From: Candidatus Bipolaricaulota bacterium
GTDB taxonomy: Bacteria; Bipolaricaulota; Bipolaricaulia; RBG-16-55-9; DRXL01
Assembly (NCBI GenBank): GCA_938091745.1
Contig: CALLJK010000011.1
Location: 62,001-126,000 of the forward strand
DNA length: 64,000 bases
Direction: 5' to 3'
Shown: positions 115-29,434 of the stretch, one piece after another
Numbering within the stretch: position 1 is the first letter of the stretch
How the letters are laid out: every line of letters begins with the position of its first letter
Notes under the pieces: generated by a model
Databases searched by the model: none
Told to the model about the DNA's origin: nothing
Seen by the model: only the letters and a program-made list of their open reading frames with translations
Made by a program: the position numbers and the translations under genes

Positions 115-591
115 TCACTTGTGGGATTTCATTTGCTCCGTCAGATAATTCTCAATCCCAATCTGTTTGATCTGGTCGAGCTGCGCTTCGAGCCAGTCGA
201 CGTGATCTTCTTCGTCGGCTAAGATAGACTCCAAGAGCGCTCGCGTCCCATTGTCCTCAACTTCAACAGCGAGCTGAATGCCCTCGTTGTACGCCTCTAC
301 GGCCATATATTCGGCCTCTACGTCGCTCTCCAACTGCGCCTTCACGTCCGGACCGATCTTGATCTCGTTGAGCTTGCTCACGATGGGAATCCCCTCAAGG
401 AAGATAATGCGCTCGATCAGTTTCTCGGCGTGCTTCATCTCGGTGATCGCCCGTTTTTCAATAGCGTCATGAAGTCGTTCGTAGCCCCAGTTGGCGCACA
501 TCTCCGAGTGCACCATATACTGATTGATTGCGGTCAACTCGTCCGCGAGCAGCGCGTTTAAGCGCTCGATAACTTTCTTGTTCCCTTTCAT
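115..591 (-). CDS. bfr: bacterioferritin (heme-binding ferritin)
   Basis: A 158-residue four-helix ferritin of the usual Bfr length. All six di-iron ligands sit at the E. coli Bfr positions: Glu18, Glu51, His54, Glu94, Glu127 and His130. Met52, the axial heme ligand that separates bacterioferritin from plain ferritin, is also present (EMKHAEK). It should form a 24-mer cage that oxidises and stores iron in the cytoplasm. It lies between the hydrogenase large subunit and the maturation protease in the same orientation, so it is probably co-transcribed with genes encoding many iron-sulfur proteins; a role in supplying iron to them is inference. The start is followed downstream by a complete frame with no disruption. 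Confidence 0.93.
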   Translation of the reverse strand: MKGNKKVIERLNALLADELTAINQYMVHSEMCANWGYERLHDAIEKRAITEMKHAEKLIERIIFLEGIPIVSKLNEIKIGPDVKAQLESDVEAEYMAVEAYNEGIQLAVEVEDNGTRALLESILADEEDHVDWLEAQLDQIKQIGIENYLTEQMKSHK

Positions 592-682: not shown

Positions 683-2146
683 TCAATCGCGTCGGATCTC
701 ACGCACGAGATTTCTGCAGCTATCGTAGACTCGCACGATCAAGGGCATCTGCCCTGGCAGGGCGTGCGTGGCGCAGCCATGGCAGGGATCGTAGGCTCTG
801 AAGGCCATCTCCACGAGATTGAGAATCCCATCGTCGATCTTACCGCCTTTGATGACGCCGCGGGCAGCTTTATCTACAGACATCGCGATCCGCGCCGCGT
901 TGTTTTGAGTAGCGACGATGAGATTCGCTTTGGTGATCACGCCTTTCTCGTCGGTCTGATAATGATGGAAGAGCGTCCCTCTGGGGGCTTCGACAACGCC
1001 GATGCCCTCTTTCGGGGTCGCCGTAGGAATTGTACGTATATTGGGGCTGGTGATCTCTGGATCGTTCGCAAGCTCTTGCATTCGTTCAGCAGCGTAGAGC
1101 AATTCGATCAACCGTGCCCAGTGATTGGCGAGCGTGTGATGGACGGGCTTTCCGCCCAGGGTCTTATAGAATTCTTTATACGCCTCTTGGGCTTTGGGTG
1201 TGGCCATGCCCTCAGCAGCGTTGAGTCTCGCCAACGGTGCAACTGCGTAGACACCGCTCTCTGGCCCGTCGACGAAGCCCTTCCAGCCTACATCTTTCAA
1301 GTAACAGAATTTAATATAGCTCCATGGCTCGACGTGCTCGGCGACGTGCTTGAGATAGTCTTGCGCTTTGAATTTTAGAAATTCTTTGCCATTGGGGTCG
1401 ACGACGCGCAGCTGCCCGTCATAGAAATTGACTCGGTTCTGATCGTCCACCAGGCCCATATAGTATGTCTTGTGGGTGTAGGTCTCGGACGTGATCGTCT
1501 CGACGTACTGTTTATTCTTTAGCACGACGTCTTGGAAGATCTGCAAGCTGAACAGTCCGAACTTCACGGCGCGCTCCGCGCCGGCGATGAACTTCTCTTG
1601 GTCTTCTTTTGTGAGCGCTTTGGAGATGCCGCCGGGCAGCCCAAACACAGGGTGAATCACTTTCCCGCCCGCAAGCGAGATCAAATCTCTAAGCTGCTTG
1701 CGCACCGCGATCACTTCCCGGCCGATCTCCAGCCCGACTTTGCTGAGCACCCCTAAGATATTGCGCTGGGCTTTGGGAGCCGTCGGGCCGACGACAAAAT
1801 CCGGCCCGCCTAGAAAGAAGAAGTGCAGCGCATGGTCTTCGACGAAGAACGTACTGTAGACGAGCTCTCTGATCTTCTTCGCTGCTGAGGGTGGCTCGAC
1901 TTTATAGAGATCGTCGAGAGCTTTGGTAGACGCCATGTGATGGGCCGTAGGGCAGACCCCGCAGATTCTTGAAGTGATTTGGGGCATGTCTTCTGCTGGG
2001 CGGCCGACGGCGAACTTCTCAAAGCCGCGCAGTTCCGGGACTTGGAAGAATGCTTTCTCAACGTTACCCTGCTCATCTAGAAAGATGTCAATCTTGCCGT
2101 GGCCCTCTAATCTCGTGATGGGATCGATGACGACTTCGCGGGTCAT
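683..2146 (-). CDS. mvhA: [NiFe]-hydrogenase large subunit, MvhA/group 3c type
   Basis: 487 residues. The N-terminal nickel motif RICGVC (Cys62, Cys65) and the C-terminal motif DPCHGCATH (Cys455, Cys458, His461) supply the four cysteines of the Ni-Fe site. A 26-residue tail follows His461 and would be removed by the maturation protease encoded further down the operon. Together with the MvhG- and MvhD-like genes directly upstream this is the F420-non-reducing, cytoplasmic group 3c hydrogenase that donates electrons to heterodisulfide reductase. It oxidises H2 and passes electrons through the small subunit. A good ribosome site (AGGAGG) precedes the ATG. The group assignment rests on operon context and motifs; a phylogeny would confirm it. 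Confidence 0.93.
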   Translation of the reverse strand: MTREVVIDPITRLEGHGKIDIFLDEQGNVEKAFFQVPELRGFEKFAVGRPAEDMPQITSRICGVCPTAHHMASTKALDDLYKVEPPSAAKKIRELVYSTFFVEDHALHFFFLGGPDFVVGPTAPKAQRNILGVLSKVGLEIGREVIAVRKQLRDLISLAGGKVIHPVFGLPGGISKALTKEDQEKFIAGAERAVKFGLFSLQIFQDVVLKNKQYVETITSETYTHKTYYMGLVDDQNRVNFYDGQLRVVDPNGKEFLKFKAQDYLKHVAEHVEPWSYIKFCYLKDVGWKGFVDGPESGVYAVAPLARLNAAEGMATPKAQEAYKEFYKTLGGKPVHHTLANHWARLIELLYAAERMQELANDPEITSPNIRTIPTATPKEGIGVVEAPRGTLFHHYQTDEKGVITKANLIVATQNNAARIAMSVDKAARGVIKGGKIDDGILNLVEMAFRAYDPCHGCATHALPGQMPLIVRVYDSCRNLVREIRRD

Positions 2147-2161
2147 GCCTGAGCACCTCCT

Positions 2162-2215
2162 GACCTCTCCCCTAGTCTCTCCCCTTCCCTTTAGGGAAGG
2201 GGCCGGGGGTTAGGT
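2162..2215. repeat. GC-rich palindromic repeat, copy 1 (encodes the MvhG C-terminus)
   Basis: Core inverted repeat CCCCTTCCCT-tt-AGGGAAGGGG flanked by a gacctctcccc end and a gggggttagg end. It belongs to a family with copies near 3196, 14906, 15311, 20956, 28454, 29039, 48323 and 56217. Here the hydrogenase small-subunit frame reads into it and ends NLTPGPFPKGKGRD. Confidence 0.8.
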
Positions 2216-3182
2216 TTCTCACGCGCCGATGCAAGAGCGATGCTGGGAGACTGTAGCGATAGAACGTCCCCACTGGATCAACAATTTGCTCCATGATCGC
2301 CGCGATCTCCTTCTCGTCTTCAGCGTCTATGAGCGACGCGATAGCCGAGAGCGCTTTTGCTCCGTAGTCTTTCACACGGCTTGTCGGGCCAAGACACCCT
2401 GTGCAGGGCATATTCGCGCTCACGCACGGGGCGCCACAGCCGGAGCGCGTCGCTGGCCCTAAGCACAGCAGCCCTTGCGCAAGCAAGCACTTCTCAGAAT
2501 CTATCTGAATCTGATGAGGGCGCTTCAGCTCTTTGAGAGCTAATTTGTCGGGCTTGGTCGGCTTGCGCGGGCACTCCTCGCAGAGGGCTTTATCGGGCGC
2601 AAGCACTGTGCCCTTGGGAGGAAGCTTTCCCTCTAAGATAGCCATCACAGCGTTGGCGATCAGTTTCACTGGTGGCGGGCAGCCCGGCAGGTAATAATCG
2701 ACTTCGACTGTCTGATCGAGCGTCTTCACGGAATCGCGGAACGACGGCAGCGTCAGCGCATAGCCGTTGGAGCCAAGTTTGAGCTGCTCCTGCGGGACAA
2801 CCCCGTCGGGGTTCGTGACGCTGGGCGCTTCTTTGTAGACATACTCAAAGATCGCTTGGCGATCCCAGAGATTCGCCAATCCGGGTACGCCCCCCAGATG
2901 CGAGCAGCTCCCGAACGCGATCAAGAGCTGAGACTTTTTGCGCAACAGTTCAGCCATCTCTTCTTGCTCTGACGTACGGATCGCCCCGTTGACAAAGCAC
3001 GCGGCCAGCTCGCCGTCTTTCATAGCTTCGACATCAGCGCGTTTGAAATCTAAGGCCACCGGCCAGAAGGCGATGTCGACGGCCTCGACGACCTTCAAGA
3101 TATCTTCAGCTAGGTCGACGACGGCCTCCTCACAGCCCCCGCACGACGCACACCAATAGAACCCGACCTTGGGCTTGCTCAT
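2172..3182 (-). CDS. mvhG: [NiFe]-hydrogenase small subunit, MvhG type
   Basis: 336 residues with no Tat signal, so cytoplasmic. The proximal-cluster cysteines are visible in WCASCGGCEE (Cys11, Cys14, Cys17), GSCSHLGG and YLPGCPPP, and further cysteines (LCEECPRK, SEKCLLAQGLLC, MPCTGCLGP) provide additional iron-sulfur sites. It relays electrons from the Ni-Fe subunit towards the MvhD-like protein. An AAGGAGGTG ribosome site fixes the start; the gene is 17 bases after mvhD. The last 14 residues (NLTPGPFPKGKGRD) come from an inserted palindromic repeat rather than from the family, so the ancestral protein probably ended near residue 322. This tail is an oddity worth noting but is unlikely to disturb the iron-sulfur core. 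Confidence 0.92.
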   Translation of the reverse strand: MSKPKVGFYWCASCGGCEEAVVDLAEDILKVVEAVDIAFWPVALDFKRADVEAMKDGELAACFVNGAIRTSEQEEMAELLRKKSQLLIAFGSCSHLGGVPGLANLWDRQAIFEYVYKEAPSVTNPDGVVPQEQLKLGSNGYALTLPSFRDSVKTLDQTVEVDYYLPGCPPPVKLIANAVMAILEGKLPPKGTVLAPDKALCEECPRKPTKPDKLALKELKRPHQIQIDSEKCLLAQGLLCLGPATRSGCGAPCVSANMPCTGCLGPTSRVKDYGAKALSAIASLIDAEDEKEIAAIMEQIVDPVGTFYRYSLPASLLHRRVRNLTPGPFPKGKGRD

Positions 3183-3195
3183 CGCGCACCTCCTT

Positions 3196-3279
3196 GACCT
3201 AACCCCTGAGTCCCCTTCCCGCCACGGGAAGGGGAACAGCTCCCCTCTCCGTTTCGGGGAGGGGCTGGGGGAGGGGTCT
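3196..3279. repeat. GC-rich palindromic repeat, copy 2 (compound; encodes the MvhD C-terminus)
   Basis: Two adjacent palindromes: CCCCTTCCC-gccac-GGGAAGGGG and CCCCTCTCC-gtttc-GGGGAGGGG, framed by gacctaacccc and gggaggggtc. The whole unit is close to the reverse complement of copy 5 at 20956-21035. The mvhD frame reads through it and ends in ERPLPQPLPETERG and about ten more repeat-encoded residues. Confidence 0.8.
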
Positions 3280-3687
3280 TTCTAGCTGCAACGGCCCAAG
3301 CTTGCGGATCTGCTCAGCCATCTCGTTCATCACTTTTTGCACGCGATCCCCTTCAGACGCCGAGATCCATTCGAGCCGCACACGCTCCGGTTCAATCCCC
3401 ATCTCGGTGAGCACGCGCTTGAGAAGCGTGTATCGGCGCAGGGCTTTATAGTTGCCCGCTTGGTAGTGACAATCCCCTGGATGGCACCCGCCAATCAAGA
3501 CGCCGTCAGCGCCATCAGCGAGGGCTTTGAGCACAAACTGCGGGTCCATTCTCCCAGAGCACATCACCCGGATGATGCGCCCGTTGGGCGCGTAGGTCAT
3601 CCGCGAGATGCCGGCTAAGTCCGCGGCCGTGTAGGTGCACCACGTGCAGAAGAACGCGACAATGCGAGGCTCCCATTGCTCAGACAT
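3199..3687 (-). CDS. mvhD: MvhD-type [2Fe-2S] electron-transfer subunit linking hydrogenase to HdrA
   Basis: 162 residues; the conserved family portion is about the first 135. Five cysteines (Cys14, Cys17, Cys43, Cys68, Cys73 in FFCTWC, MCSGR and GGCHPGDCHY) match the MvhD/VhuD pattern that binds one [2Fe-2S] cluster and wires MvhAG to HdrA. The gene overlaps the end of hdrA by 8 bases, which suggests translational coupling and equal production. The final stretch of about 25 residues is encoded by a palindromic repeat, giving a Pro/Gly/Arg-rich tail foreign to the family. Family assignment is strong; whether the tail is kept in the mature protein is unknown. Confidence 0.92.
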   Translation of the reverse strand: MSEQWEPRIVAFFCTWCTYTAADLAGISRMTYAPNGRIIRVMCSGRMDPQFVLKALADGADGVLIGGCHPGDCHYQAGNYKALRRYTLLKRVLTEMGIEPERVRLEWISASEGDRVQKVMNEMAEQIRKLGPLQLERPLPQPLPETERGAVPLPVAGRGLRG

Positions 3688-6600
3688 AGCTTAACACCCC
3701 TTCGATCTCCTGATAAATTTGTTCGTCGGTGAATAAGTGTTGCTGGGCTGCACCTGACGGGCACGCTGCAACACAGGTGCCGCAGCCCTTGCACAGGGCT
3801 TCGTTGATCACTGCGATGCCCTTGTCACTGTTGAAGCTGATCGCGCTGAACGGGCACAAGGGGATGCACGTCTTGCACCCAGAGCAGAGCTCTTCTCGGA
3901 TGAACGCAGTGTTGGGTTCGAGCTCGACAAAGCCGCGGTCAATCAACGAAAGAACTTCGGCGGCGGCTGCGCCCGCTTGCGCGACCGTGTCTTGGATATC
4001 TTTGGGGCCTTGGCACGCCCCAGCAATGAAGATGCCATCGGCAAATGTTTGCACGGGTGCAAGCTTGGGGTGACGCTCCAAGAAGAAGCCGCCCGTCCCA
4101 CACGAGATATAGAACTTCCGGCGGACTTCGTCAGCGTCAGCTTGGGGCTCCAATCCTACGGCAAGCACAACCATGTCGACGGGGATGCGGCGAATGACGC
4201 CGATGAGCGTGTCTTCGGCTCTGATAACGAGCTTACCCTCCTCGTCGGGGGTCATGGCGTGATCTGTCACCTCGGCGACTCGCCCACGGATGAAGTGAAT
4301 CCCCTCTTCGAGCATTCGGTCATAGAACTCTTCGTAGGCTTTGCCTGGCACGCGCATGTCGATGTAGAAGTTATAGACTTCGGCACCGGTGCGCTCTTTG
4401 ATCAAGTGTGCGAGCTTGAGCGAGTAGAGACAGCAGACACGTGAGCAGTAGGAGTTATAGTTTCTGTCGCGCGATCCGACGCAGTGAATGATCCCCACGG
4501 CTTTCGGTTTTCTGCCATCGCGCAGGCGGATCTCGCCCCCTGTAGGGCCAGCAGAGTTCGTCATGCGTTCGATCTCGAGAGCCGTGTAGACATTGGGATA
4601 TTTGCCATAGCCGTAGCGCGGGATGCGCCGCGCGTCGAAGGGCTTGAACCCCGTTGCTAATATAATCGAGCCCACGACGATCTCTTGAATGTGGTCCTTC
4701 ATCTCATAATTGATGGCTTTGGCTTCGCAGACGGTCGAGCAGAGCCGACAGTCACAACAGATCGCACAATCAAGACAGCGCTTCGCTTCAGCAATAGCTT
4801 GCTCTTGCGTGTAGCCCGTGTGCACCTCGTCAAAAGTCCGGCGGCGCTCAAGCGCAATGGCGGGCATCGGGATCTGCTTTTGCATTGCAACGCCGCTGGT
4901 GTCAATAGCGTACTCGGTGCGATAGGGGCCTTCGCGCTCACGCCCCGCGCGCATATCTAATTTATTGATATAGCGATCAATAGAGATAGCCGCTTTCTTG
5001 CCAGCGTACATGGCGTTGACGACGACATCAGGCCCCGTGACGCAGTCGCCGCCGGCGAAGACCCCAGGGATGTTCGTTTCGAGCGTCACCTCGTCGACTT
5101 TGAAGGTGCCCCACTTCGTCGTCTCGAGGCCAAGCTTGTCACCCAGAGATTTCAGATCGGGCACTTGCCCAATCGTTGCGATGATCGCATCGCAAGAGAG
5201 CACAAACTCTGAGCCGGGGATCGGCTCTGGAGCGGGGCGCCCCGAAGCGTCGGGTGCGCCGAGCTTCATCTTCAAGCACTCGAGAGCTGTCACGCCTGTA
5301 TCTTTGTTCCCTAAGATCGTCTTAGGAGCTGCCAAGAAGAGCATCTTGATGCCTTCTTCTTCGGCAGCCTCGATCTCTTTGGGATCGGCGGGCATCTCGG
5401 CGCGCGTGCGCCGATAGACTATCGTGACTTCTTTCGCGCCGCAGCGGAGTGCCGTGCGCGCCGCGTCGACAGCCGAGTTGCCCCCGCCGATCACCAAGAC
5501 TCTCTCTCCTAGCTTGAATGGCCCTTCGAGATTGACTTTACGTAAGAATTCGATCCCACCCCACACATTAGGCAGGTCTTCTCCCGGAACGTTGAGCCTG
5601 CGCTCGACATGCGCTCCGATCCCAATGAAGACCGCAGCGTATTGCTTGCGGAGCTCTTCGAGGGTGACTGCCTTGCCCACAGGAGTATTGGTCTTGATCT
5701 CGATCCCGATCTCTTTCAGTCTATTGATCTCTTTACTGATGACATCGCGCGGGAGCCGAAATGCGGGGATTCCGACAGAGAGCATCCCACCGGGGACGGG
5801 CTGCGCTTCGTAGATCACGGGCCAGTAGCCCCGTTGTCTCAGTTCGTACGCGCACATCAGTCCAGCAGGGCCAGAGCCAACAATCGCGATCTTCTCTGAG
5901 CGATTCACTTTGGGTTGCGGGAGCTTATAGTCTGGGAAGAGATCCGTGACAAAGCGTTTCAGCCCTGGAATATTGAGCGGGTCATCTACAGTGCCTCGCG
6001 TGCAGTTGACCGTGCACGGATGGGTGCAGATGCGCCCGCAGATCGAGGGCAAGGGGTTGTCTCTCAAAATAACGTCGAGGGCTTCTTTGAACTTGCCGTG
6101 GGCAATGAGCGTGATATAGCCCTGGGCGTTCTGGTGGATCGAGCACGCGGCTTGGCAGGGGGGCGTGCCCCGTCGCGAAATAGTGAAGACGTTGGGCACC
6201 GCTTGGGGGAATGGTCTGTAGATCGCTTTGCGCATCGCCAATCCTTCGTCGAACTCCGAGGGCACGCTCACCGGACAGACCTCCGCACAGAGCCCACATC
6301 CTGTGCACGTGTCTTCGTTGACATAGCACGCCTTGCGCCGAATTCGCACTTTAAAGTTTCTCAGATCATACGGTTCGACGGACTCGACCTCGGAGTACGT
6401 CAACAGCTCGATGTTGGGATGACTGCGCACTTGGGTCATCTTGGGGGTTAAGATACACGCAGCGCAGTCGAGGGTCGGGAAGCACTTGTCAAACTGTGCC
6501 ATGTGCCCGCCAATGGTCGGCTCGCGCTCGACGAGATAGACTTTCTTGCCGGCATCGGCGATCTTGAGAGCGGCTTCGATGCCCGCGATCCCGCCCCCGA

Positions 6601-7060
6601 CAATCAAGACGTGCGGATGGACAGGCACGCGCTTCTTCTCCAAAGGTTCATGGAACGCGACACGGCGCACCGCCGCAGCGATGAGCGCTTTGGCTTTTTC
6701 AGTCGCTTTATGTCCATCGGCGGTCACCCAGCTCACGTGCTCGCGAATATTAGCCATATGGAAGAAGAACGGGTTCTGTCCGCCTTCAGCTGTCGCTCTC
6801 CGAAACGTTGCTTCGTGCATCAGCGGCGAGCACGACGCCACGACGACGCGATTGATCTTCCCCTCACGCAAGTCTTGCTGAATCAGCTCTTGCCCCGGAT
6901 CAGAACACATGAACTTATACTCACGAGCGACGGTGACGAACGGCAGCGTCTTGGCGAACTCCACAACCTCAGAGACATTCACTTTCGCGGCGATATTGAC
7001 GCCGCAGTGACAGACATAGACGCCGATCTTGGGCGCGCCATTGGTAGTCGGTTCAGGCAT
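3680..7060 (-). CDS. hdrA: HdrA with an inserted GltD/NfnB-like NAD(P)-FAD domain
   Basis: 1126 residues, far longer than ordinary HdrA (about 650). Order: HdrA N-terminal domain (about 10-140, with VYVCHCGVNI), FAD site (HVLIVGGGIAGIE, near 150), a first [4Fe-4S] motif (CTGCGLCAEVC, near 252), then about 460 foreign residues with the Fer4_20 cysteines of glutamate-synthase small subunits (PPCQAAC, ICGRICTHPC), an FAD motif (IAIVGSGPAGL) and an NAD(P) motif (VLVIGGGNSAVDAA), then the AKRCLDC exit motif. HdrA resumes at CDCRLCSTVC and ends with two more [4Fe-4S] motifs. HdrA is the flavin-bifurcating subunit of MvhADG-HdrABC; the insert resembles NfnB/GltD, which bind NAD(P)H. The ATG at 7060 has AGGAGG 11 bases upstream and overlaps hdrB by 8 bases; a GTG at 7072 lies inside that ribosome site. 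Confidence 0.92.
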   Translation of the reverse strand: MPEPTTNGAPKIGVYVCHCGVNIAAKVNVSEVVEFAKTLPFVTVAREYKFMCSDPGQELIQQDLREGKINRVVVASCSPLMHEATFRRATAEGGQNPFFFHMANIREHVSWVTADGHKATEKAKALIAAAVRRVAFHEPLEKKRVPVHPHVLIVGGGIAGIEAALKIADAGKKVYLVEREPTIGGHMAQFDKCFPTLDCAACILTPKMTQVRSHPNIELLTYSEVESVEPYDLRNFKVRIRRKACYVNEDTCTGCGLCAEVCPVSVPSEFDEGLAMRKAIYRPFPQAVPNVFTISRRGTPPCQAACSIHQNAQGYITLIAHGKFKEALDVILRDNPLPSICGRICTHPCTVNCTRGTVDDPLNIPGLKRFVTDLFPDYKLPQPKVNRSEKIAIVGSGPAGLMCAYELRQRGYWPVIYEAQPVPGGMLSVGIPAFRLPRDVISKEINRLKEIGIEIKTNTPVGKAVTLEELRKQYAAVFIGIGAHVERRLNVPGEDLPNVWGGIEFLRKVNLEGPFKLGERVLVIGGGNSAVDAARTALRCGAKEVTIVYRRTRAEMPADPKEIEAAEEEGIKMLFLAAPKTILGNKDTGVTALECLKMKLGAPDASGRPAPEPIPGSEFVLSCDAIIATIGQVPDLKSLGDKLGLETTKWGTFKVDEVTLETNIPGVFAGGDCVTGPDVVVNAMYAGKKAAISIDRYINKLDMRAGREREGPYRTEYAIDTSGVAMQKQIPMPAIALERRRTFDEVHTGYTQEQAIAEAKRCLDCAICCDCRLCSTVCEAKAINYEMKDHIQEIVVGSIILATGFKPFDARRIPRYGYGKYPNVYTALEIERMTNSAGPTGGEIRLRDGRKPKAVGIIHCVGSRDRNYNSYCSRVCCLYSLKLAHLIKERTGAEVYNFYIDMRVPGKAYEEFYDRMLEEGIHFIRGRVAEVTDHAMTPDEEGKLVIRAEDTLIGVIRRIPVDMVVLAVGLEPQADADEVRRKFYISCGTGGFFLERHPKLAPVQTFADGIFIAGACQGPKDIQDTVAQAGAAAAEVLSLIDRGFVELEPNTAFIREELCSGCKTCIPLCPFSAISFNSDKGIAVINEALCKGCGTCVAACPSGAAQQHLFTDEQIYQEIEGVLSYV

Positions 7061-7943
7061 GGACACGCGCACCTCCTCTCGCAGCGGGAAGAGTGAAGGG
7101 GACTAAGAGCCGATGCATTCCAAGCTGGCGCTCCGGCACCCCGAGGGCTAGCCCTAACAGTTGAGTGAAATACACAACTGGTATTTCCAGGCGCTCCTTG
7201 AACTGTCGGCTCATCTTGTCTTGGTAGCACTCTAGATTAAATTGGCAGAGTGGGCACGCGGTCGCGACGACGTCCGCGCCGCGCTTGAGCGCTTCTTTCA
7301 GTAAGATATAGCTGAGCGGTACGCCGACTTCAGGAAGCGTGCCCATGAGGCTGCCACCGCAGCAGCGCGTCTTCAAGGGCCAGTCGACCGTCTCTGCTCC
7401 CAGTGTCCTCATTAAGTGATCCATCGTCTTGGGATTAACTTGATCATCGAAGGCTGCATAGGGGCGCACGATCTGGCAGCCGTAATAGCACGCGACCTTC
7501 AGCCCTCTCAAGGGCTGGCGGACTTTGCTGGAGATCTGCTGCACCCCAATCTCGTGAATGAGAATATCCAAGGGGTGGCGCACGTGGACCTGGCGTGCAT
7601 AGCTCAAGCGTGCTGCTTGCAAAGCACCGTCAATCGTGCGGCTCACTTCGGAGTACTCTTCTAAGTAATGCTGGGTCTTGGAAAGCACTAGATAGCAGCC
7701 GCTGCACGGAGCCATGAGCGTCGGGTGATCTGGGGCTTGGCGCTCGGCGAGCGCGAGATTCCGCGCGGCCAGCGCAAAGGATTTCATCTCGTCTACGGCC
7801 ATATACGCTGTGGCGCCGCAGCAGTTCCAATCTTCGAGTTCCTCGATCTCGATATCGAGTGCTCGGAAGGAGGCGAGCACCGACTCTTCGTAAGCGCGAT
7901 TGGTGCCCTTGAGCGAGCACCCGGGATAGTAGAGATATTTCAT
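7053..7943 (-). CDS. hdrB: heterodisulfide reductase subunit B-like protein (CCG domains)
   Basis: 296 residues with two CCG domains: Cys9, Cys41-Cys42, Cys80, Cys83 and Cys152, Cys156, Cys194-Cys195, Cys230, Cys233. In methanogen HdrB these hold the pair of noncubane [4Fe-4S] clusters that cleave a disulfide. In bacteria the physiological substrate of such HdrB proteins is generally not CoM-CoB heterodisulfide; it could be another disulfide or carrier, and the sequence does not tell. It overlaps hdrC by the ATGA arrangement and hdrA by 8 bases, so the three Hdr subunits are translationally coupled. Length and cysteine spacing are normal for the family. Confidence 0.93.
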   Translation of the reverse strand: MKYLYYPGCSLKGTNRAYEESVLASFRALDIEIEELEDWNCCGATAYMAVDEMKSFALAARNLALAERQAPDHPTLMAPCSGCYLVLSKTQHYLEEYSEVSRTIDGALQAARLSYARQVHVRHPLDILIHEIGVQQISSKVRQPLRGLKVACYYGCQIVRPYAAFDDQVNPKTMDHLMRTLGAETVDWPLKTRCCGGSLMGTLPEVGVPLSYILLKEALKRGADVVATACPLCQFNLECYQDKMSRQFKERLEIPVVYFTQLLGLALGVPERQLGMHRLLVPFTLPAARGGARVHA

Positions 7944-8581
7944 GTGTGGGCCACCTCTCTGCGCACATCGCGCGCGAGCTTATCGACGAACGCCGTCGCT
8001 TTAGCGGCGTCCACTGCGCGCAAGATTTGGTCAATCTGCTGGCGGTTCTTGACGGATTCCGCGTGTAGGCTGAACCGTCCTGTTCGAAGGAGTTTGAGCC
8101 CTAGCAAGGCTTGGTCCAAGATCTTCAAGGGGTTGGTCTTAGCGTAGAGTCGCAGCACTAAGCGACTTTCGGTGCTGCGCCCACGCTTGCGCACCGCCTT
8201 GAAGAACTCACGAGCGAGCACAGAGACGGGGAAGCGCTTGGGGTCAACCCCCTCTTGGATGGCGCGCTGCTTCAGCTCGGCCATGAAGTCCGTGATCTTG
8301 ATCTTTCGCGGGCACTCGACCGCGCAGGCATAGCACGACGCGCACAGCCAAATTGTGAAGCTGTGCAGGACTTCGTCCTTGAAGCCGGCTCGGGTCATGG
8401 CGATGATCTTGCGGGGTGAGTAGTCCATATACATCGCCAAGGGGCAGGTGCCGCTACAGGTGCCGCACTGGATGCACGCGAAGAGGGCACGCCCACCGGG
8501 CATGGAGGCGACCTCCTCAGGAAAACGCAAGTCCAGCTCCGCTTCATATCGGAACCGTGGCCACGATTGCCATTCTTTCAT
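7940..8581 (-). CDS. hdrC: heterodisulfide reductase subunit C-like iron-sulfur protein
   Basis: 213 residues. Two classical [4Fe-4S] motifs are visible: Cys36-Cys39-Cys42-Cys46 (CIQCGTCSGTC) and Cys80-Cys83-Cys86-Cys90 (CASCYACAVEC). HdrC carries electrons between HdrA and the catalytic HdrB. It is the first gene of the operon, has a clear AGGAGG site before the ATG, and its stop overlaps the hdrB start by four bases. The C-terminal 90 residues are helical and basic, slightly longer than minimal methanogen HdrC. No membrane segment is seen, so the complex should be soluble. Confidence 0.93.
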   Translation of the reverse strand: MKEWQSWPRFRYEAELDLRFPEEVASMPGGRALFACIQCGTCSGTCPLAMYMDYSPRKIIAMTRAGFKDEVLHSFTIWLCASCYACAVECPRKIKITDFMAELKQRAIQEGVDPKRFPVSVLAREFFKAVRKRGRSTESRLVLRLYAKTNPLKILDQALLGLKLLRTGRFSLHAESVKNRQQIDQILRAVDAAKATAFVDKLARDVRREVAHT

Positions 8582-8806: not shown

Positions 8807-11068
8807 ATGGGATTGAGGGAAGATGCCTTAGAATACCATAGCAAGCAACCACCAGGCAAGTGGGAGATCACCCCGACCAAGCCCTGTCTCACCCAGCGCG
8901 ATCTCTCGTTAGCATATACGCCCGGGGTTGCCGAGCCTTGTCTGGAGATCCAGAAGAACCCAGAGGACGCATACACGTACACGACCAAGGGGAACCTGGT
9001 CGCCGTAATCACCAATGGCACGGCCGTCTTGGGATTAGGCAATATCGGCGCTCTCGCAGGCAAGCCCGTCATGGAGGGCAAAGCCCTGCTCTTCAAGCGC
9101 TTCGCCGACATTGATGCGATTGATTTAGAAGTGAACACAGAAGACCCAGAATTATTTATTCAGATTGTTAAGCTCCTGGAGCCAACCTTTGGCGGCGTCA
9201 ATCTGGAAGACATCAAAGCACCAGAGTGTTTTTATATCGAAGAGACTCTGAAAAAACAGATGAATATCCCGGTCTTTCATGATGATCAGCATGGCACGGC
9301 GATTATCTCCGGGGCAGCGTTGCTCAACGCATTAGAATTAGTCGATAAAAAGATCTCAGAGGTGAAGATCGTCTTCAGCGGGGCGGGGGCTGCAGCTATT
9401 GCCACAGCCAAGTTCTATGTGCTCTTGGGTGCCAAGAGAGAGAATATCATTATGTGCGACACCCACGGGGTAATCTATCAAGGCCGCGAGGAAGGCATGA
9501 ACCCGTATAAGCAAGAGTTTGCCGCCAAGACCAAAGCGCGCACCCTCGCTGAGGCTCTCGTAGACGCCGATGTCTTCGTGGGGCTGTCGGGGCCAAATAC
9601 AGTTACAAAAGAGATGGTCAAGAAGATGGCCAAAAGCCCAATTATCTTTGCCATGGCCAACCCCAACCCCGAAATCCCCTATCCCGACGCGAAAGCCGCT
9701 CGCCCCGATGCCCTCGTCGCCACCGGGCGCAGCGACTTCCCCAACCAAGTCAATAACGTCTTAGGGTTTCCGTTCATCTTCCGTGGGGCGCTCGACGTGC
9801 GCGCTACTCAGATCAACGAAGCGATGAAAGTTGCTGCCGCCAAGGCCCTCGCGGCGCTGGCAAAAGAGGACGTCCCCGACTCGGTCGTCAAAGCGTATGG
9901 ACTAGAGTCGTTGCACTTTGGGCCGGATTATCTCATTCCCAAGCCGTTAGACCCACGGGTGCTCTTGTGGGAGGCCCCAGCGGTCGCTCAAGCGGCTATG
10001 GAGACCGGCGTAGCGCGAGTGAAGCTCGATCTCAACAAATATCGGGAGCAACTGGAAGCGCGCTTAGGGAAATCTCGCGAGATGATGCGGATTATCATCA
10101 ACAAGGCGCGGGCGAACCCCAAGCGCATCGTTCTCGCAGAAGGTGAGCACGAGAAGATGATCCGCGCCGCGTATCAGTTGGTCTTCGAGCGCATCGCCAA
10201 GCCCATTCTCTTGGGAGATGCGCAAAAGATCCGCGAGCGCGCCCAGCAATTACAGATCAATCTCAACGGCATCGACGTGATAGACCCGCGCACCGATGCG
10301 CGCCGGGAACGCTATGCGCAGAGACTCTATGAACTGCGCTGCCGCAAAGGCGTGGCGCTGAATGAAGCCCATGAGCTGATCACCAGGCCCAATTACTTTG
10401 CAGCGATTATGGTCGAGATGGGCGACGCTGACGGGATGATCGCGGGCTTGGGCTTCCATTATCCTGAGGGGCTGCGCCCGATCCTACAGATCATTAAGAC
10501 GCGCCCTGATTGCAAGACCATCGCTGGGGCATACCTTGTCACGGTAAAGAATAGAGTTTTGCTTTTTGCTGACGCGACGGTGAATGTCGAGACGGACGCT
10601 GAGAAGCTTGCGGAGATCGCGATCCTGACAGCGCGCTTGGCCAAGGACTTCAACATCGAGCCGCGCATCGCGATGCTCTCCTACTCTGATTTTGGCAGCG
10701 TGCGCCATGCCCGCACGGAGCGCGTCCGCCAAGCCGTGGAGATCGTGCGTCAGCGCGCGCCTGAGCTTATCATTGACGGTGAGATGCAGGCCGACACCGC
10801 GCTCATCCCCGAGATCCTCAACGGGGGGTATCCGTTCAATCGCTTGAAAGAGCCGGCGAACGTCTTGATCTTCCCCAACTTGGAGTCGGGGAACATCAGC
10901 TACAAATTAGTGCAGTGTCTGGCCAACGCTGAGGTCATCGGCCCCATTCTGATCGGGACGCGCAAGCCAGCTTATGTGTTGCAGCGCTATCACGAAGTGA
11001 AGGACATCGTGAATCTCGCTGCGATGGCTGTCGTTGAGGCGCAGAAGCTCGAAGGGGCTGTCAAGTAG
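8807..11068 (+). CDS. maeB: NADP-type malic enzyme with C-terminal phosphotransacetylase-like domain
   Basis: 753 residues, the normal length for the large bacterial MaeB type. The N-terminal malic domain (about 1-160; [14 protein letters not shown] and the FHDDQHGTA metal-site region) and the nucleotide-binding domain (about 165-400; [13 protein letters not shown]) convert malate to pyruvate and CO2 with reduction of NAD(P). The C-terminal 330 residues resemble phosphate acetyltransferase; in this family that domain is usually catalytically silent and gives control by acetyl-CoA. The AAAGGAG site and ATG are clear. A hairpin terminator follows directly, so it is a single-gene unit. It would link C4 acids to pyruvate and supply reducing power. 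Cofactor preference cannot be read safely from the sequence. Confidence 0.93.
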
Positions 11069-26209: not shown

Positions 26210-29200
26210 CTACGCGTGCCCCGCAAAGGCTTGCAGAATCTGTCGGTTAATCGGGACGTTCTGCAAAAAGCTCGCCCGCAGCGCTTCTTCGGTGATCTGC
26301 CCGGCTACACGGCAGACTTCGTCATAGGCTTTCTGTAGATAGATTTTGGCTTCGTCGGTGCGTCCGTTCGCTTGAAGAATTTGATAATGCGTGAAGTAGA
26401 AGCGCTGCGCTTGGGTGATCATCCCGTGCTGAGCTTCGAGCACCTGCATGGCGCGCGTGGAGCATTCCAACGCTAAACTCAGATCCCCAAGCCCAAGATG
26501 CGCCCGGCCCTTCTCCGAGAGCGTCCCGACTTCGAGCCCTTTTAGGCCCGCTTCGCCCAGCATACTCACCACACGATCGAGATAGCCGAGCGCTTCGGTA
26601 TAGTGCCCTTGCTCGTTCTGGAGTGTCCCCAAATTTAAGAGAATGACCCCTAAGCCCCGCCGGTCCCTCACTTCGCTCATCAATTTATAAGCGTGCTCGT
26701 AGCACTCCTGAGCACGCTCCCATTGACCAAGATCGCAGAAAACCAAGCCAAGATTGTTGAGCGCCGCTGCTTGTCCCCGTAGGTCAGCGACCGCTTGAAA
26801 CTCCGCGAGTGCTCTTTCTAAGCTCTCTTGGGCTTGTGCGTACTCTCCCAGAAAGAGCTGGATGATCGCGCTATTTCTCAGGGCATAGGCCCGGCGGTGC
26901 TCATCACCCAGGGAGGCCCACAGTTCCCCCGCGCGCCGGAAATACTCTAACGCCTCGCTGTGCTCGCCCAGTTGGGCATGAACGTCTCCAATATTGTAGA
27001 GCACTCTCGCTGTGACTGAAACATCAGAGAGTTTTTGGCTGATCTCTAATGCTTCTCTAAGGGCTTTCTGGGCGGCTTCACGCCGATCTGCGGCCAGCTC
27101 AAGCCACGCTCTCTTCTTGTAGGCTTGGCACAGCAAGACTTGCTCTCCCAGCTCTTGGGCGAGCGCGATCATCTCCTCTATAACAGCGTGCAGCTTGTTG
27201 AGGGCTGGCTTGATGTCGTAGATCGTGGGGAAGAGATCGGTGTAGCAATCTAACAGCTCGAGCTTGGCCTTGCGTAGGCGCGCAGCGCGTTGGGTTCCGA
27301 GCTTGGAAAAGAGTCCAAGAGCCCTTTCTGTGAGCGCCAGGGCCTCACTGTATGCGTAAGCCCGCTGGGCCCGTCGGGCCGCTGGCAGCATATATGTGAG
27401 CGCTTTCTCCCACAACTGCGCGCGCTCGCAGTGCTCGGCAAGCTCTCGCGAGAACTCTTCCACACGATCGGCATAGATCTTCTCTAGAGCTTCAGCGATC
27501 TTTTTGTGCCCCACTCTCTTTCGGTCGGTGCCCAGCCCATCGTAGACAACTTGGCGCACAAGCTCGTGTGAGAAGCGATAGCACCCCTCATGCTCGACGA
27601 TCAACCCCAGACGGCGCAGGTCATCGAGCCGGTCGAGCAGGGCTTCTTCGGGTTGGCGTAAGACCCCCTGTAAGAGCGATAGTTCACATGATCGTCCGGC
27701 TATCGCTGCTAGACTGAGCACGCAGTATGCTCGCCGAGGCACGCGCCGGAGCAGAGTCCCTATGAGCTCTTTCAAGCTCCCCGGCACGTGCACCGCGCTG
27801 ATCTCTCCTGCTGTGAGCTTCCAGCGCCCATTGGGGTCGTGCTTCAGCGTGCCGCTGGCTATGAATGAGCGTATCAGCTCTCTCACAAAGAGCGGGTTGC
27901 CCTCGGTCTCAGCGTAGAGCGTCTCAAGAACTGCGCTGTCATACTGATGCAAGAGCTGGTTCAGTAATAAGTCTGTTTCGTCTCGCGACAGCGGGGGAAG
28001 CACAAGCGTCTGCGCAAGATCCCTGGGGAGCCTATCGAGCCACTTGCGCAATGAGCTGCCCTCTTGGGCTTCTTCAGCGCGATATGTCCCGATAAAGAAG
28101 ATTCGCTGATCTTTCAGATGTGCGATGAGATGGGTCAGATACTCAAGAGTCGCGCCATCGGCCCAGTGCAAGTCGTCGAGGAAGAGAACGACTGGGCGCT
28201 CGCGGGCGAGCAGTTCAAAGAGCCCTGTGAGCGCAGCGAACCAGCGAGATTTTCCTTGGGGTGCGGGGGGATTGAGCTTGAGATCGGGAAATCTCTCGTG
28301 AAGTTCAGGAATGGACCGAGCCAGCTCGCTGCGCCAAAGGGCGGGGAGCTGCGCCAGGCTCTCGTACGAGACGGCCTTCAGCCCATGGCGGACGGCTTGG
28401 AAGATGGGATCGTAAGGCGGCGCATCAGCGTAGGCTGTACCACGGAGAATGATTCCCCCTCCCTCTTTAGGGGAGGGGCCAAGGGGAGAGGTCTCTAAGA
28501 AATGCTCGACAAAGCGCGTCTTACCCACACCGACCTCGCCCCCGATCAGAAGAGCTTGGCCTGCGCCATCACAAGCTTTCCGCCAAAGATTTTTCAGGAG
28601 CTCACATTCGCGCTCGCGGCCCACAAAGGGCGTCTCGGCGGGCAGCTCAGCGACATGAACGTGAATAGGTTCTGGAGAGGCACCGCGCAGGATTTTTTCG
28701 TAGAGTGCCTGGGTTTCCGGCAGGGGAGGGACGTGCAACTCTCTCTGAAGGACCTCACAGTATTCTCTGTACTGGCGTAAAGCTGCCGTGCGGTCTCCGC
28801 TCAGAGCATAAAGTGTCATCAACTCTCGATGCGCCCGCTCGTGCCACGGCACAGCGTGCAGGACCTTCGTCCAGACAGAGATCGCTTTCTGGAATTCGTG
28901 CTGTGCTTGGTAGATCTCGGCGAGCTGCTCGAGGGCGTCCAAGTAGAGTGACTGGAGGCGTTCGCTTTCAGAGATAGCCCAATCTTCGTAGATGCCCATC
29001 AAGGGCGGGCCACGATAGAGCGCAATGGCTTGCTCCAAGGCCCTCACCCTGGCTTCGCCACCCCTCTCCCGTAGCTCACCTACGGGAGAGGGGCCGGGGG
29101 TGAAGGTCACAATCCGCTCAAACTCTTCAATATCGAGCCAACAGTCAGATGGGTTAAATCTCACAGCGCCGCCGGAGGAGATGAGCCATCGCTCTGCTTC

Positions 29201-29434
29201 GGGGCTGAGCATCTTTCGGAGCAGCGAGAGAGCTTTGCGCAGGTTGGCGCGCCCGTGCTTCTCTTCAGTTTCGGGCCAGAGCAGATTTGCTAAGAGAGCG
29301 CGTGGGTGCGCGTGGTCGCGATAGATGACAAGATACGCAAAGAGTTCCTTGACTTTCTGGGTTGGGAAGTCAAGGAGCTGCTCGTCACAGTGGACTTCGA
29401 GCTGCCCTAACAGCCGGATCTCTAAGCGAGCCAT
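26210..29434 (-). CDS. SARP/BTAD-type transcription regulator with AAA+ ATPase and TPR domains
   Basis: 1074 residues. Winged-helix DNA-binding domain (1-100; LEIRLLGQLEVHCDEQLLDF, NLLWPETEEKHGRANLRKAL), BTAD helical domain (about 105-255; RAHRELMTLYALSGDRTAAL), AAA ATPase (about 265-500; Walker A GGEVGVGKT, Walker B VVLFLDDLHWAD), then at least eight TPRs (about 640-1060; AALNNLGLVFCDLGQWERAQ). Such proteins act as ATP-dependent activators like the SARP and MalT/LuxR-LAL groups. The oddity is two in-frame insertions of the GC-rich repeat, at residues about 109-132 (FTPGPSPVGELRERGGEARV) and 313-327 (TSPLGPSPKEGG); both lie in loops, the second just after the Walker A helix. Target genes unknown. 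Confidence 0.85.
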   Translation of the reverse strand: MARLEIRLLGQLEVHCDEQLLDFPTQKVKELFAYLVIYRDHAHPRALLANLLWPETEEKHGRANLRKALSLLRKMLSPEAERWLISSGGAVRFNPSDCWLDIEEFERIVTFTPGPSPVGELRERGGEARVRALEQAIALYRGPPLMGIYEDWAISESERLQSLYLDALEQLAEIYQAQHEFQKAISVWTKVLHAVPWHERAHRELMTLYALSGDRTAALRQYREYCEVLQRELHVPPLPETQALYEKILRGASPEPIHVHVAELPAETPFVGRERECELLKNLWRKACDGAGQALLIGGEVGVGKTRFVEHFLETSPLGPSPKEGGGIILRGTAYADAPPYDPIFQAVRHGLKAVSYESLAQLPALWRSELARSIPELHERFPDLKLNPPAPQGKSRWFAALTGLFELLARERPVVLFLDDLHWADGATLEYLTHLIAHLKDQRIFFIGTYRAEEAQEGSSLRKWLDRLPRDLAQTLVLPPLSRDETDLLLNQLLHQYDSAVLETLYAETEGNPLFVRELIRSFIASGTLKHDPNGRWKLTAGEISAVHVPGSLKELIGTLLRRVPRRAYCVLSLAAIAGRSCELSLLQGVLRQPEEALLDRLDDLRRLGLIVEHEGCYRFSHELVRQVVYDGLGTDRKRVGHKKIAEALEKIYADRVEEFSRELAEHCERAQLWEKALTYMLPAARRAQRAYAYSEALALTERALGLFSKLGTQRAARLRKAKLELLDCYTDLFPTIYDIKPALNKLHAVIEEMIALAQELGEQVLLCQAYKKRAWLELAADRREAAQKALREALEISQKLSDVSVTARVLYNIGDVHAQLGEHSEALEYFRRAGELWASLGDEHRRAYALRNSAIIQLFLGEYAQAQESLERALAEFQAVADLRGQAAALNNLGLVFCDLGQWERAQECYEHAYKLMSEVRDRRGLGVILLNLGTLQNEQGHYTEALGYLDRVVSMLGEAGLKGLEVGTLSEKGRAHLGLGDLSLALECSTRAMQVLEAQHGMITQAQRFYFTHYQILQANGRTDEAKIYLQKAYDEVCRVAGQITEEALRASFLQNVPINRQILQAFAGHA
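28454..28495. repeat. GC-rich palindromic repeat, copy 6 (in frame inside the regulator gene)
   Basis: CCCCCTCCCTC-ttta-GGGGAGGGG, then ccaaggggagaggtc, almost identical to copy 4. It keeps the reading frame and encodes TSPLGPSPKEGG next to the Walker A helix. Confidence 0.75.
29039..29108. repeat. GC-rich palindromic repeat, copy 7 (in frame inside the regulator gene)
   Basis: About 70 bases: ggccctcaccc end, CCCCTCTCCCGTAG-ctca-CCTACGGGAGAGGGG core, gggggtgaaggtc end. It is the same subtype as copy 8 at 48323. It encodes FTPGPSPVGELRERGG in the linker between the DNA-binding and BTAD domains. Confidence 0.78.

What the first reader, a model, noticed from the sequence alone, without database searches (positions are those of the whole stretch)
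3680..7060. HdrA with a whole GltD/NfnB-like domain inserted in its ferredoxin region
The sequence shows HdrA interrupted between its first [4Fe-4S] motif (CTGCGLCAEVC) and the next (CDCRLCSTVC) by about 460 residues with the Fer4_20 cysteines, an FAD motif and an NAD(P) motif of glutamate-synthase small subunits. From known families, HdrA bifurcates electrons between a disulfide reductase and ferredoxin, and NfnB/GltD bind NAD(P)H. The inference is a single enzyme coupling H2, ferredoxin, NAD(P) and a disulfide-type acceptor, a three- or four-way electron hub. Related fusions may exist in other deep-branching anaerobes; I cannot check.
Basis: partly seen in the sequence, partly recalled or inferred. 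Interest (0 to 1): 0.72.

Follow-up and report, generated by a model that had tools for sequence, protein, structure and literature searches.

The report
HdrA with built-in NAD(P)H module
A hydrogen-using bacterial enzyme subunit (HdrA) really does carry a complete NAD(P)H-handling module spliced into it; this design has been published for a few archaea and for Moorella, but it is far more widespread in bacteria than reported, and the module seems to have been exchanged between different HdrA backbones.

Summary
The gene at 3680-7072 (-) encodes an 1130-aa HdrA interrupted, between the two [4Fe-4S] motifs of its inserted ferredoxin domain, by about 460 residues of a GltD/NfnB-type FAD/NAD(P)H module. 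It lies in hdrC-hdrB-hdrA-mvhD-mvhG-mvhA. It is not an assembly chimera: close relatives share the fusion and, where contigs allow, the operon, at 96-59% identity, and all 80 loci retained from a genome scan carry it. The idea is not new. The insertion is published for Moorella HdrA, for ANME-1 HdrA9-11, and as archaeal 'type III HdrA', including a Bathyarchaeota cluster with mvhADG and much the same mechanistic proposal. What I add: (i) wide bacterial distribution; (ii) the module is a circularly permuted GltD whose last cluster-ligand cysteine (C769) lies three residues before C772 of HdrA ferredoxin motif II, so the clusters should be adjacent; (iii) insert and backbone trees reject each other, so the module moved between single and tandem HdrA backbones at one fixed site. 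Most likely this is an H2 / NAD(P)(H) / disulfide-type enzyme in which NAD(P)(H) replaces free ferredoxin at HdrA's low-potential port: a three-way, not four-way, hub. Nothing biochemical was tested.

The parts
3680..7072 (-). hdrA with inserted GltD/NfnB module, 1130 aa (alternative ATG start at 7060)
4793..6172 (-). inserted GltD/NfnB-type FAD/NAD(P)H module, residues about 301-760
   Evidence: 9bov, StnC 8oh5, NfnB 5jca and 4ylf; Pfam Fer4_20 and Pyr_redox_2
6275..6307 (-). HdrA inserted-ferredoxin motif I, C256xxC259xxC262xxxC266
   Evidence: alignment to 5odc; present in 82 of 82 rows with residues there
5861..5881 (-). insert FAD fingerprint VGSGPAG, residues 398-404
5456..5488 (-). insert NAD(P) fingerprint GGGNSAVDAAR, residues 529-539
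5387..5416 (-). YRRTRAEMPA, residues 553-562, as in NADP(H)-binding NfnB/GltD
4766..4852 (-). circularly permuted N-terminal segment of the GltD fold (residues 741-769, ends in RC766LDC769)
   Evidence: NfnB residues 7-47 align to the insert's C-terminal end
4727..4759 (-). HdrA inserted-ferredoxin motif II, C772xxC775xxC778xxxC782
   Evidence: all 77 sequences with residues there
7053..7943 (-). hdrB, two CCG domains
7940..8581 (-). hdrC
3199..3687 (-). mvhD (FlpD)
2172..3182 (-). mvhG, hydrogenase small subunit
683..2146 (-). mvhA, NiFe hydrogenase large subunit with RxCGxC and DPCxxCxxH

Best explanation
This is a Bipolaricaulota member of the GltD-inserted ('type III') HdrA family in an HdrABC-MvhADG complex. 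[quoted passage not shown] The HdrA FAD (K886, E835) splits or joins electrons between HdrC-HdrB (an unidentified disulfide-type partner) and the inserted ferredoxin domain. That ferredoxin domain, which in methanogens hands electrons to free ferredoxin, is here wired to NAD(P)(H) through two [4Fe-4S] clusters and the FAD of a circularly permuted GltD module. Net reaction, reversible and set by H2 pressure: 2 H2 + disulfide + NAD(P)+ <-> dithiol + NAD(P)H + H+. Shown here: architecture, predicted fold, conservation, cofactor motifs, operon. Inferred: electron path, direction, nucleotide specificity, and replacement of ferredoxin. The module was exchanged between HdrA backbones at this fixed site (shown by trees for at least two cases).
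For: Domain matches and folds. The operon hdrCBA-mvhDGA is conserved in relatives. HdrA bifurcation residues K409/E356 of M. thermolithotrophicus correspond to K886/E835, each present in all 73 aligned sequences with residues there; their role is from PMC12054007. Insert NAD(P) sites are intact in nearly all sequences: YRR in 77 of 78. C766 and C769 are cysteines in 77 of 78 and motif II cysteines in 77 of 77; C769 and C772 are three residues apart, which should force cluster proximity. Precedent: for the Moorella complex, whose HdrA has the same GltD insertion (PMC9430772), recombinant HdrA was shown to be the site of NADH oxidation (Mock 2014 as cited in PMC8760232). A type III model shows GltD covering the ferredoxin site (PMC12054007). 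Exchange of the module: the insert tree joins the window clade and Acidobacteriota tandem HdrA (100/99) and rejects the eight single-HdrA rows nearest the window as one clade (p-AU 0.0015); the backbone rejects that union (p 4.8e-8) and L092+L023 (p 5.8e-44), although their inserts are sisters at 100/99.
Against: No biochemistry. Coordinates of the model could not be read, so cluster distances are not measured, and the HdrA dimer and whole complex were not modelled. Ferredoxin might still dock elsewhere. Nucleotide specificity is unresolved: the motif resembles NADP(H)-specific NfnB, but the Moorella complex was assayed with NADH. The natural disulfide is unknown (no DsrC hit in the 91.5% complete genome). 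The genome also has a group 3b-like hydrogenase that could link H2 and NAD(P) by itself.
Confidence: 0.62

Rival explanations
1. Four-way hub: NAD(P)H, ferredoxin, H2 and disulfide all react, with the insert FAD as a second bifurcating flavin like NfnB.
For: The Arg that holds N5 of the bifurcating FAD in P. furiosus NfnB (R201) corresponds to R439 and is present in all 81 sequences with residues there. PMC9012536 suggested two bifurcation sites for the ANME-1 fusions.
Against: The same Arg is present in StnC, whose GltD flavin is non-bifurcating (PMC10482914). The operon has no NfnA partner, and no NfnA-type hit in the genome passes the family cut-off. The insert sits on the ferredoxin-docking domain.
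Confidence: 0.15
2. Simple H2:NAD(P)+ oxidoreductase or electron-entry module without energy coupling: the HdrA FAD does not bifurcate and HdrBC is structural or uses another acceptor.
For: Non-bifurcating HdrA complexes exist (stated in PMC9430772). No disulfide substrate is identified; DsrC gave no hit.
Against: Both diagnostic residues for a bifurcating HdrA FAD are conserved. HdrB keeps both CCG domains and HdrC its ferredoxin motifs.
Confidence: 0.18
3. Redundant or decaying insertion with no nicotinamide function.
For: One relative (L022/L066) has lost the NAD(P) fingerprint while keeping the insert, and carries separate NfnA and NfnB genes in the operon.
Against: In the window and nearly all others the FAD, NAD(P) and cysteine motifs are intact over divergences down to about 45% identity.
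Confidence: 0.03
4. Assembly chimera or annotation artefact.
For: None found.
Against: Same fusion in related genomes and in 80 loci from other assemblies; uniform GC.
Confidence: 0.005

Closest known systems
Type III HdrA of methane-metabolizing archaea (A9/A10; ANME-1 and Bathyarchaeota; PMC12054007), including ANME-1 HdrA9-11 (PMC9012536)
   Same: GltD/NfnB insertion in the inserted ferredoxin domain; HdrA K/E residues kept; the Bathyarchaeota cluster includes mvhADG; the proposed mechanism (nicotinamide in place of ferredoxin) is essentially the same.
   Different: Bacterial host (Bipolaricaulota). The NAD(P) fingerprint here is GxGxxA, whereas PMC12054007 reports GxGxxG and infers NAD+. 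The insert is about 45-50% identical to the Bathyarchaeota inserts found here.
HdrA of the Moorella thermoacetica MetFV-HdrABC-MvhD complex (PMC9430772; Mock 2014 as cited in PMC8760232 and PMC5861303)
   Same: GltD domain interrupting the HdrA TrxR/ferredoxin unit; HdrA is the site of NADH oxidation; MvhD present.
   Different: Moorella HdrA is a tandem of two HdrA-type units and is linked to methylene-THF reductase, not to MvhAG; here there is one HdrA and a NiFe hydrogenase.
HdrABC-MvhADG of methanogens (5odc)
   Same: All six subunits and HdrA domain order; model matches 5odc with target TM 0.88.
   Different: No nicotinamide module; ferredoxin is the low-potential acceptor.
StnC / Nfn-ABC GltD modules (8oh5, 9bov, 9n5u)
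   Same: Closest solved relatives of the insert, with the same permuted arrangement ending in RCLxC; in StnC used to pass NADPH electrons into another module (PMC10482914).
   Different: There joined to NuoG-like domains (described for StnC), not HdrA.

Membership tests
HdrA | HdrA N-terminal, TrxR-like and C-terminal ferredoxin domains; E356 and K409 equivalents | tested here: met
   (K886, E835)
HdrA | Two [4Fe-4S] motifs of the inserted ferredoxin domain intact | tested here: met
Type III (GltD-inserted) HdrA | GltD domain inserted in the inserted ferredoxin domain of a single HdrA | tested here: met
Type III (GltD-inserted) HdrA | GXGXXG nucleotide motif (reported property in PMC12054007, used there to infer NAD+, not to define the type) | tested here: not met
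   Window has GGGNSA (GxGxxA); among rows with residues there only L083 (Bathyarchaeota) reads GGGNVG. The type is defined by the insertion; the published motif may refer to the FAD site or to a subset, so membership is not withdrawn.
HdrABC-MvhADG electron-bifurcating complex | hdrA, hdrB, hdrC, mvhA, mvhD, mvhG together | tested here: met
HdrABC-MvhADG electron-bifurcating complex | H2-dependent reduction of heterodisulfide coupled to ferredoxin | not testable with these tools
   needs assay; CoM-S-S-CoB is not expected in this bacterium (own knowledge)
NfnAB (bifurcating transhydrogenase) | NfnA partner with [2Fe-2S] and a-FAD | tested here: not met
   not in the operon; no hit over the family cut-off in the genome
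NfnB/GltD domain | Fer4_20 plus FAD and NAD(P) Rossmann folds | tested here: met
   circularly permuted

The most novel reading that the evidence does not exclude
The NAD(P)H module is an exchangeable cassette: a circularly permuted GltD whose two ends meet, spliced into one fixed socket in HdrA and swapped as a block (about residues 250-770) between single and tandem HdrA backbones across many bacterial and archaeal phyla, converting ferredoxin-linked Hdr complexes into nicotinamide-linked ones.
Probability: 0.55. Interest if true: 0.6.

Novelty: new member of a known kind. Interest (0 to 1): 0.45.

Why it matters
HdrA complexes set how anaerobes spend H2, formate and methylene-THF electrons. 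If GltD-inserted HdrA is as common in bacteria as these data indicate, many 'HdrABC-MvhADG' annotations that imply H2-driven ferredoxin reduction may be wrong about the product, which would change inferred energy budgets for Bipolaricaulota, Acidobacteriota, Dehalococcoidia and WOR-3. The exchange of the module between backbones also gives a concrete case of plug-in evolution of electron-bifurcating enzymes, and natural variants (NAD(P) site lost; cysteines lost; tandem with or without insert) offer ready tests.

Tried and rejected
Assembly chimera: rejected. Recent foreign insert: no support, GC and GC3 match the flanks. Insert as a plain NfnB: rejected, its N-terminal segment is at the C-terminal end and its closest solved kin are Nfn-ABC and StnC modules. 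DsrC as HdrB partner: no hit in the genome. The first insert tree held three wrong-strand outgroup rows (L017, L018, L021); it was discarded and rebuilt. The AU tests were set up after seeing identity patterns, so their p-values are somewhat optimistic. A literature search limited to open-access papers cannot exclude further descriptions (for example the Appel 2021 review, which is cited by others but was not read).
Full report
WHAT IS THERE. The minus strand carries a compact operon, hdrC 7940-8581, hdrB 7053-7943, hdrA 3680-7072, mvhD 3199-3687, mvhG 2172-3182, mvhA 683-2146. The 1130-aa HdrA matches methanogen HdrA (5odc) over residues 14-300 and 763-1126. Between them lies a stretch that matches NfnB/GltD-type chains, best Nfn-ABC 9bov, then 9n5u, StnC 8oh5 and NfnB 5jca/4ylf. 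The insertion point is inside the inserted ferredoxin domain of HdrA, between [4Fe-4S] motif I (C256-C266) and motif II (C772-C782). AlphaFold2 on an alignment of 36 fusions gives pLDDT 85.3, pTM 0.75. Foldseek aligns the model with 5odc over 1122 columns (target TM 0.88) and the insert with 9bov at 2.7 A over 485 columns. So the predicted HdrA fold closes around a complete GltD fold.

NOT AN ARTEFACT. The fusion is present in related genomes of the same genus, family and order at 96 to 59% identity, with the operon order conserved where contigs reach. A scan of the GTDB species genomes with the 5' junction gave 337 relatives from only two peptide patterns. Because the query includes HdrA residues, not all 337 are proven fusions, but all 80 retained loci carry HdrA and NfnB-insert matches in one reading frame. 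By record title they include Bipolaricaulota/Acetothermia, Fraserbacteria, Acidobacteriota, Hydrogenedentota, Caldisericaceae, Calditrichota, Chloroflexota (mainly Dehalococcoidia), Bathyarchaeota, WOR-3/Stahlbacteria, TA06, Latescibacteria, Atribacteria, Spirochaetales, Bacillota, Planctomycetota and Proteobacteria; MAG titles can be wrong. GC and GC3 of the insert equal the flanks. The window's own genome is a 1.74-Mb, 91.5%-complete Bipolaricaulota-type MAG (phylum inferred from near-identical named relatives).

ANATOMY OF THE INSERT. In NfnB and GltD the segment R-x-F-x-E-V ... RCLxC is N-terminal. phmmer aligns NfnB residues 7-47 to the C-terminal end of the insert (about 732-771) and the rest of NfnB to its front part. 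The insert is therefore a circularly permuted GltD, as in StnC and Nfn-ABC, so both ends lie in the Fer4_20 domain and should meet in space. That suits splicing into a loop of another domain. By analogy with dihydropyrimidine dehydrogenase (own knowledge of that structure), C766 and C769 should ligate the outer of the two GltD clusters. C769 lies three residues before C772, the first ligand of HdrA ferredoxin motif II. Where residues are present, C766 and C769 are cysteines in 77 of 78 sequences and the four motif II cysteines in 77 of 77; the exception L062 has lost C766 and C769. This should force the GltD and HdrA-ferredoxin clusters to be neighbours.

COFACTOR SITES. HdrA E356 and K409, the markers of a bifurcating HdrA flavin (PMC12054007, PMC9430772), correspond to E835 and K886, each found in all 73 aligned sequences with residues there. 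The insert FAD fingerprint is intact, and the NAD(P) site reads GGGNxAxDxAR ... YRRxxxEMPA, like NADP(H)-binding NfnB, in almost every sequence. PMC12054007 states GXGXXG for archaeal type III and infers NAD+; in the Bathyarchaeota loci here five of six read GxGxxA, and only L083 reads GGGNVG. The Moorella enzyme was assayed with NADH (PMC8760232, PMC5861303). Nucleotide specificity is therefore open. The Arg that holds flavin N5 in P. furiosus NfnB (R201) is R439, but StnC has it too and does not bifurcate at that flavin (PMC10482914), so it is not diagnostic.

TWO BACKBONES, ONE SOCKET. The same insert at the same point occurs in single HdrA (about 1110 aa) and in the first unit of tandem HdrA-HdrA proteins (about 1490 aa). 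Tandem forms sit next to MetF in several loci (L082, L084, L089, L096, L108, L109), like Moorella, or next to hydrogenase-like genes in Acidobacteriota. The window's own genome has a tandem HdrA without insert next to MetF and Fhs (L028); its relative L023 has a tandem with insert in the same setting.

THE MODULE MOVED. Acidobacteriota tandem proteins are about 71% identical to the window in the insert but 57% and 39% in the two backbone parts (L042). In contrast L043, a single HdrA, is 78, 66 and 75% (N part, insert, C part). Trees: on the backbone the Acidobacteriota tandems group with the other tandems (100/99); on the insert they are sister to the window clade (100/99). AU tests reject the insert clade on the backbone (p 4.8e-8) and the backbone grouping on the insert (p 0.0015 for the single-HdrA group, 6e-55 for all tandems). 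A second case, L092 (single) with L023 (tandem), is joined 100/99 by the insert and rejected by the backbone (p 5.8e-44). Insert-bearing backbones are not one clade (p 2e-46) and at least three gains or losses are needed. Sliding identity places the exchanged block at about residues 250-770. Groups were named after seeing identity patterns, so p-values are somewhat optimistic, but the effect is large.

MECHANISM. [quoted passage not shown] Here the last exit is plugged by the GltD module, so the low-potential branch most likely ends at NAD(P)(H). At low H2 pressure NADP+ reduction by H2 is uphill and could be driven by the disulfide branch; the reverse would make H2 from NAD(P)H and a dithiol (thermodynamic reasoning, inference). 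The thiol partner is unknown; DsrC gave no hit. A group 3b-like hydrogenase on the same contig offers an uncoupled H2/NAD(P) link, so the Hdr complex would have to earn its keep by coupling.

A NATURAL VARIANT. L022/L066, a second copy in a Bipolaricaulota relative, keeps the insert, its cysteines and FAD motif but has lost the NAD(P) fingerprint (LGDDDRALD, no YRR); its operon contains separate NfnA- and NfnB-type genes plus mvhG and mvhA. This suggests the nicotinamide port was handed to another protein.

NOVELTY. The architecture is published: Moorella HdrA (PMC9430772), ANME-1 HdrA9-11 (PMC9012536) and archaeal type III HdrA, nine sequences, including a Bathyarchaeota cluster with mvhADG and the nicotinamide-for-ferredoxin proposal (PMC12054007). 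In the open-access papers searched I found no report of the wide bacterial spread, the circular permutation and ligand adjacency, or the exchange of the module between backbones. The window protein itself is a new member of a known kind.

Noticed in passing
window 8807-11068 (+): Malic enzyme-phosphotransacetylase fusion (best NCBIfam: NADP-dependent malic enzyme), divergent from hdrC; the pairing is conserved in L025, L026, L032, L033. Circumstantial hint that the nucleotide is NADP(H).
   Followed up: partly
L022 7986-13580 (same locus as L066): Fusion paralogue with degenerate NAD(P) site and separate NfnA and NfnB genes in the same operon.
   Followed up: partly
L023 6276-10784 and L028 6986-10162: Tandem HdrA-HdrA beside MetF and Fhs, with the insert (L023) and without it (L028, the window's own genome).
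   Followed up: partly
L029 4890-6545 and 8598-11594: In the window's genome GltD-type modules are also joined to a pyruvate oxidoreductase delta (PorD-like) part and to indolepyruvate oxidoreductase alpha, so nicotinamide modules on ferredoxin enzymes are a habit of this organism.
   Followed up: no
L121 31-4499 (G000 contig C11, outside the window): Group 3b-like NiFe hydrogenase operon with FNR-like subunit about 20 kb from the window edge.
   Followed up: no
L062: Acidobacteriota tandem fusion in which both permuted cluster cysteines (C766, C769) are replaced (KRALASG); a possible natural wire-cut.
   Followed up: no
window 115-591 (-): Ferritin-like protein downstream of mvhA, kept in L032, L033, L034.
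   Followed up: no
window 26210-29434 (-): 1074-aa protein resembling SARP/AfsR-type regulators and the TOMM kinase/cyclase region with TPR repeats.
   Followed up: no
L083 (Bathyarchaeota): Only fusion seen with GGGNVG in the NAD(P) fingerprint; the published GXGXXG statement for type III HdrA does not hold for most sequences here.
   Followed up: partly
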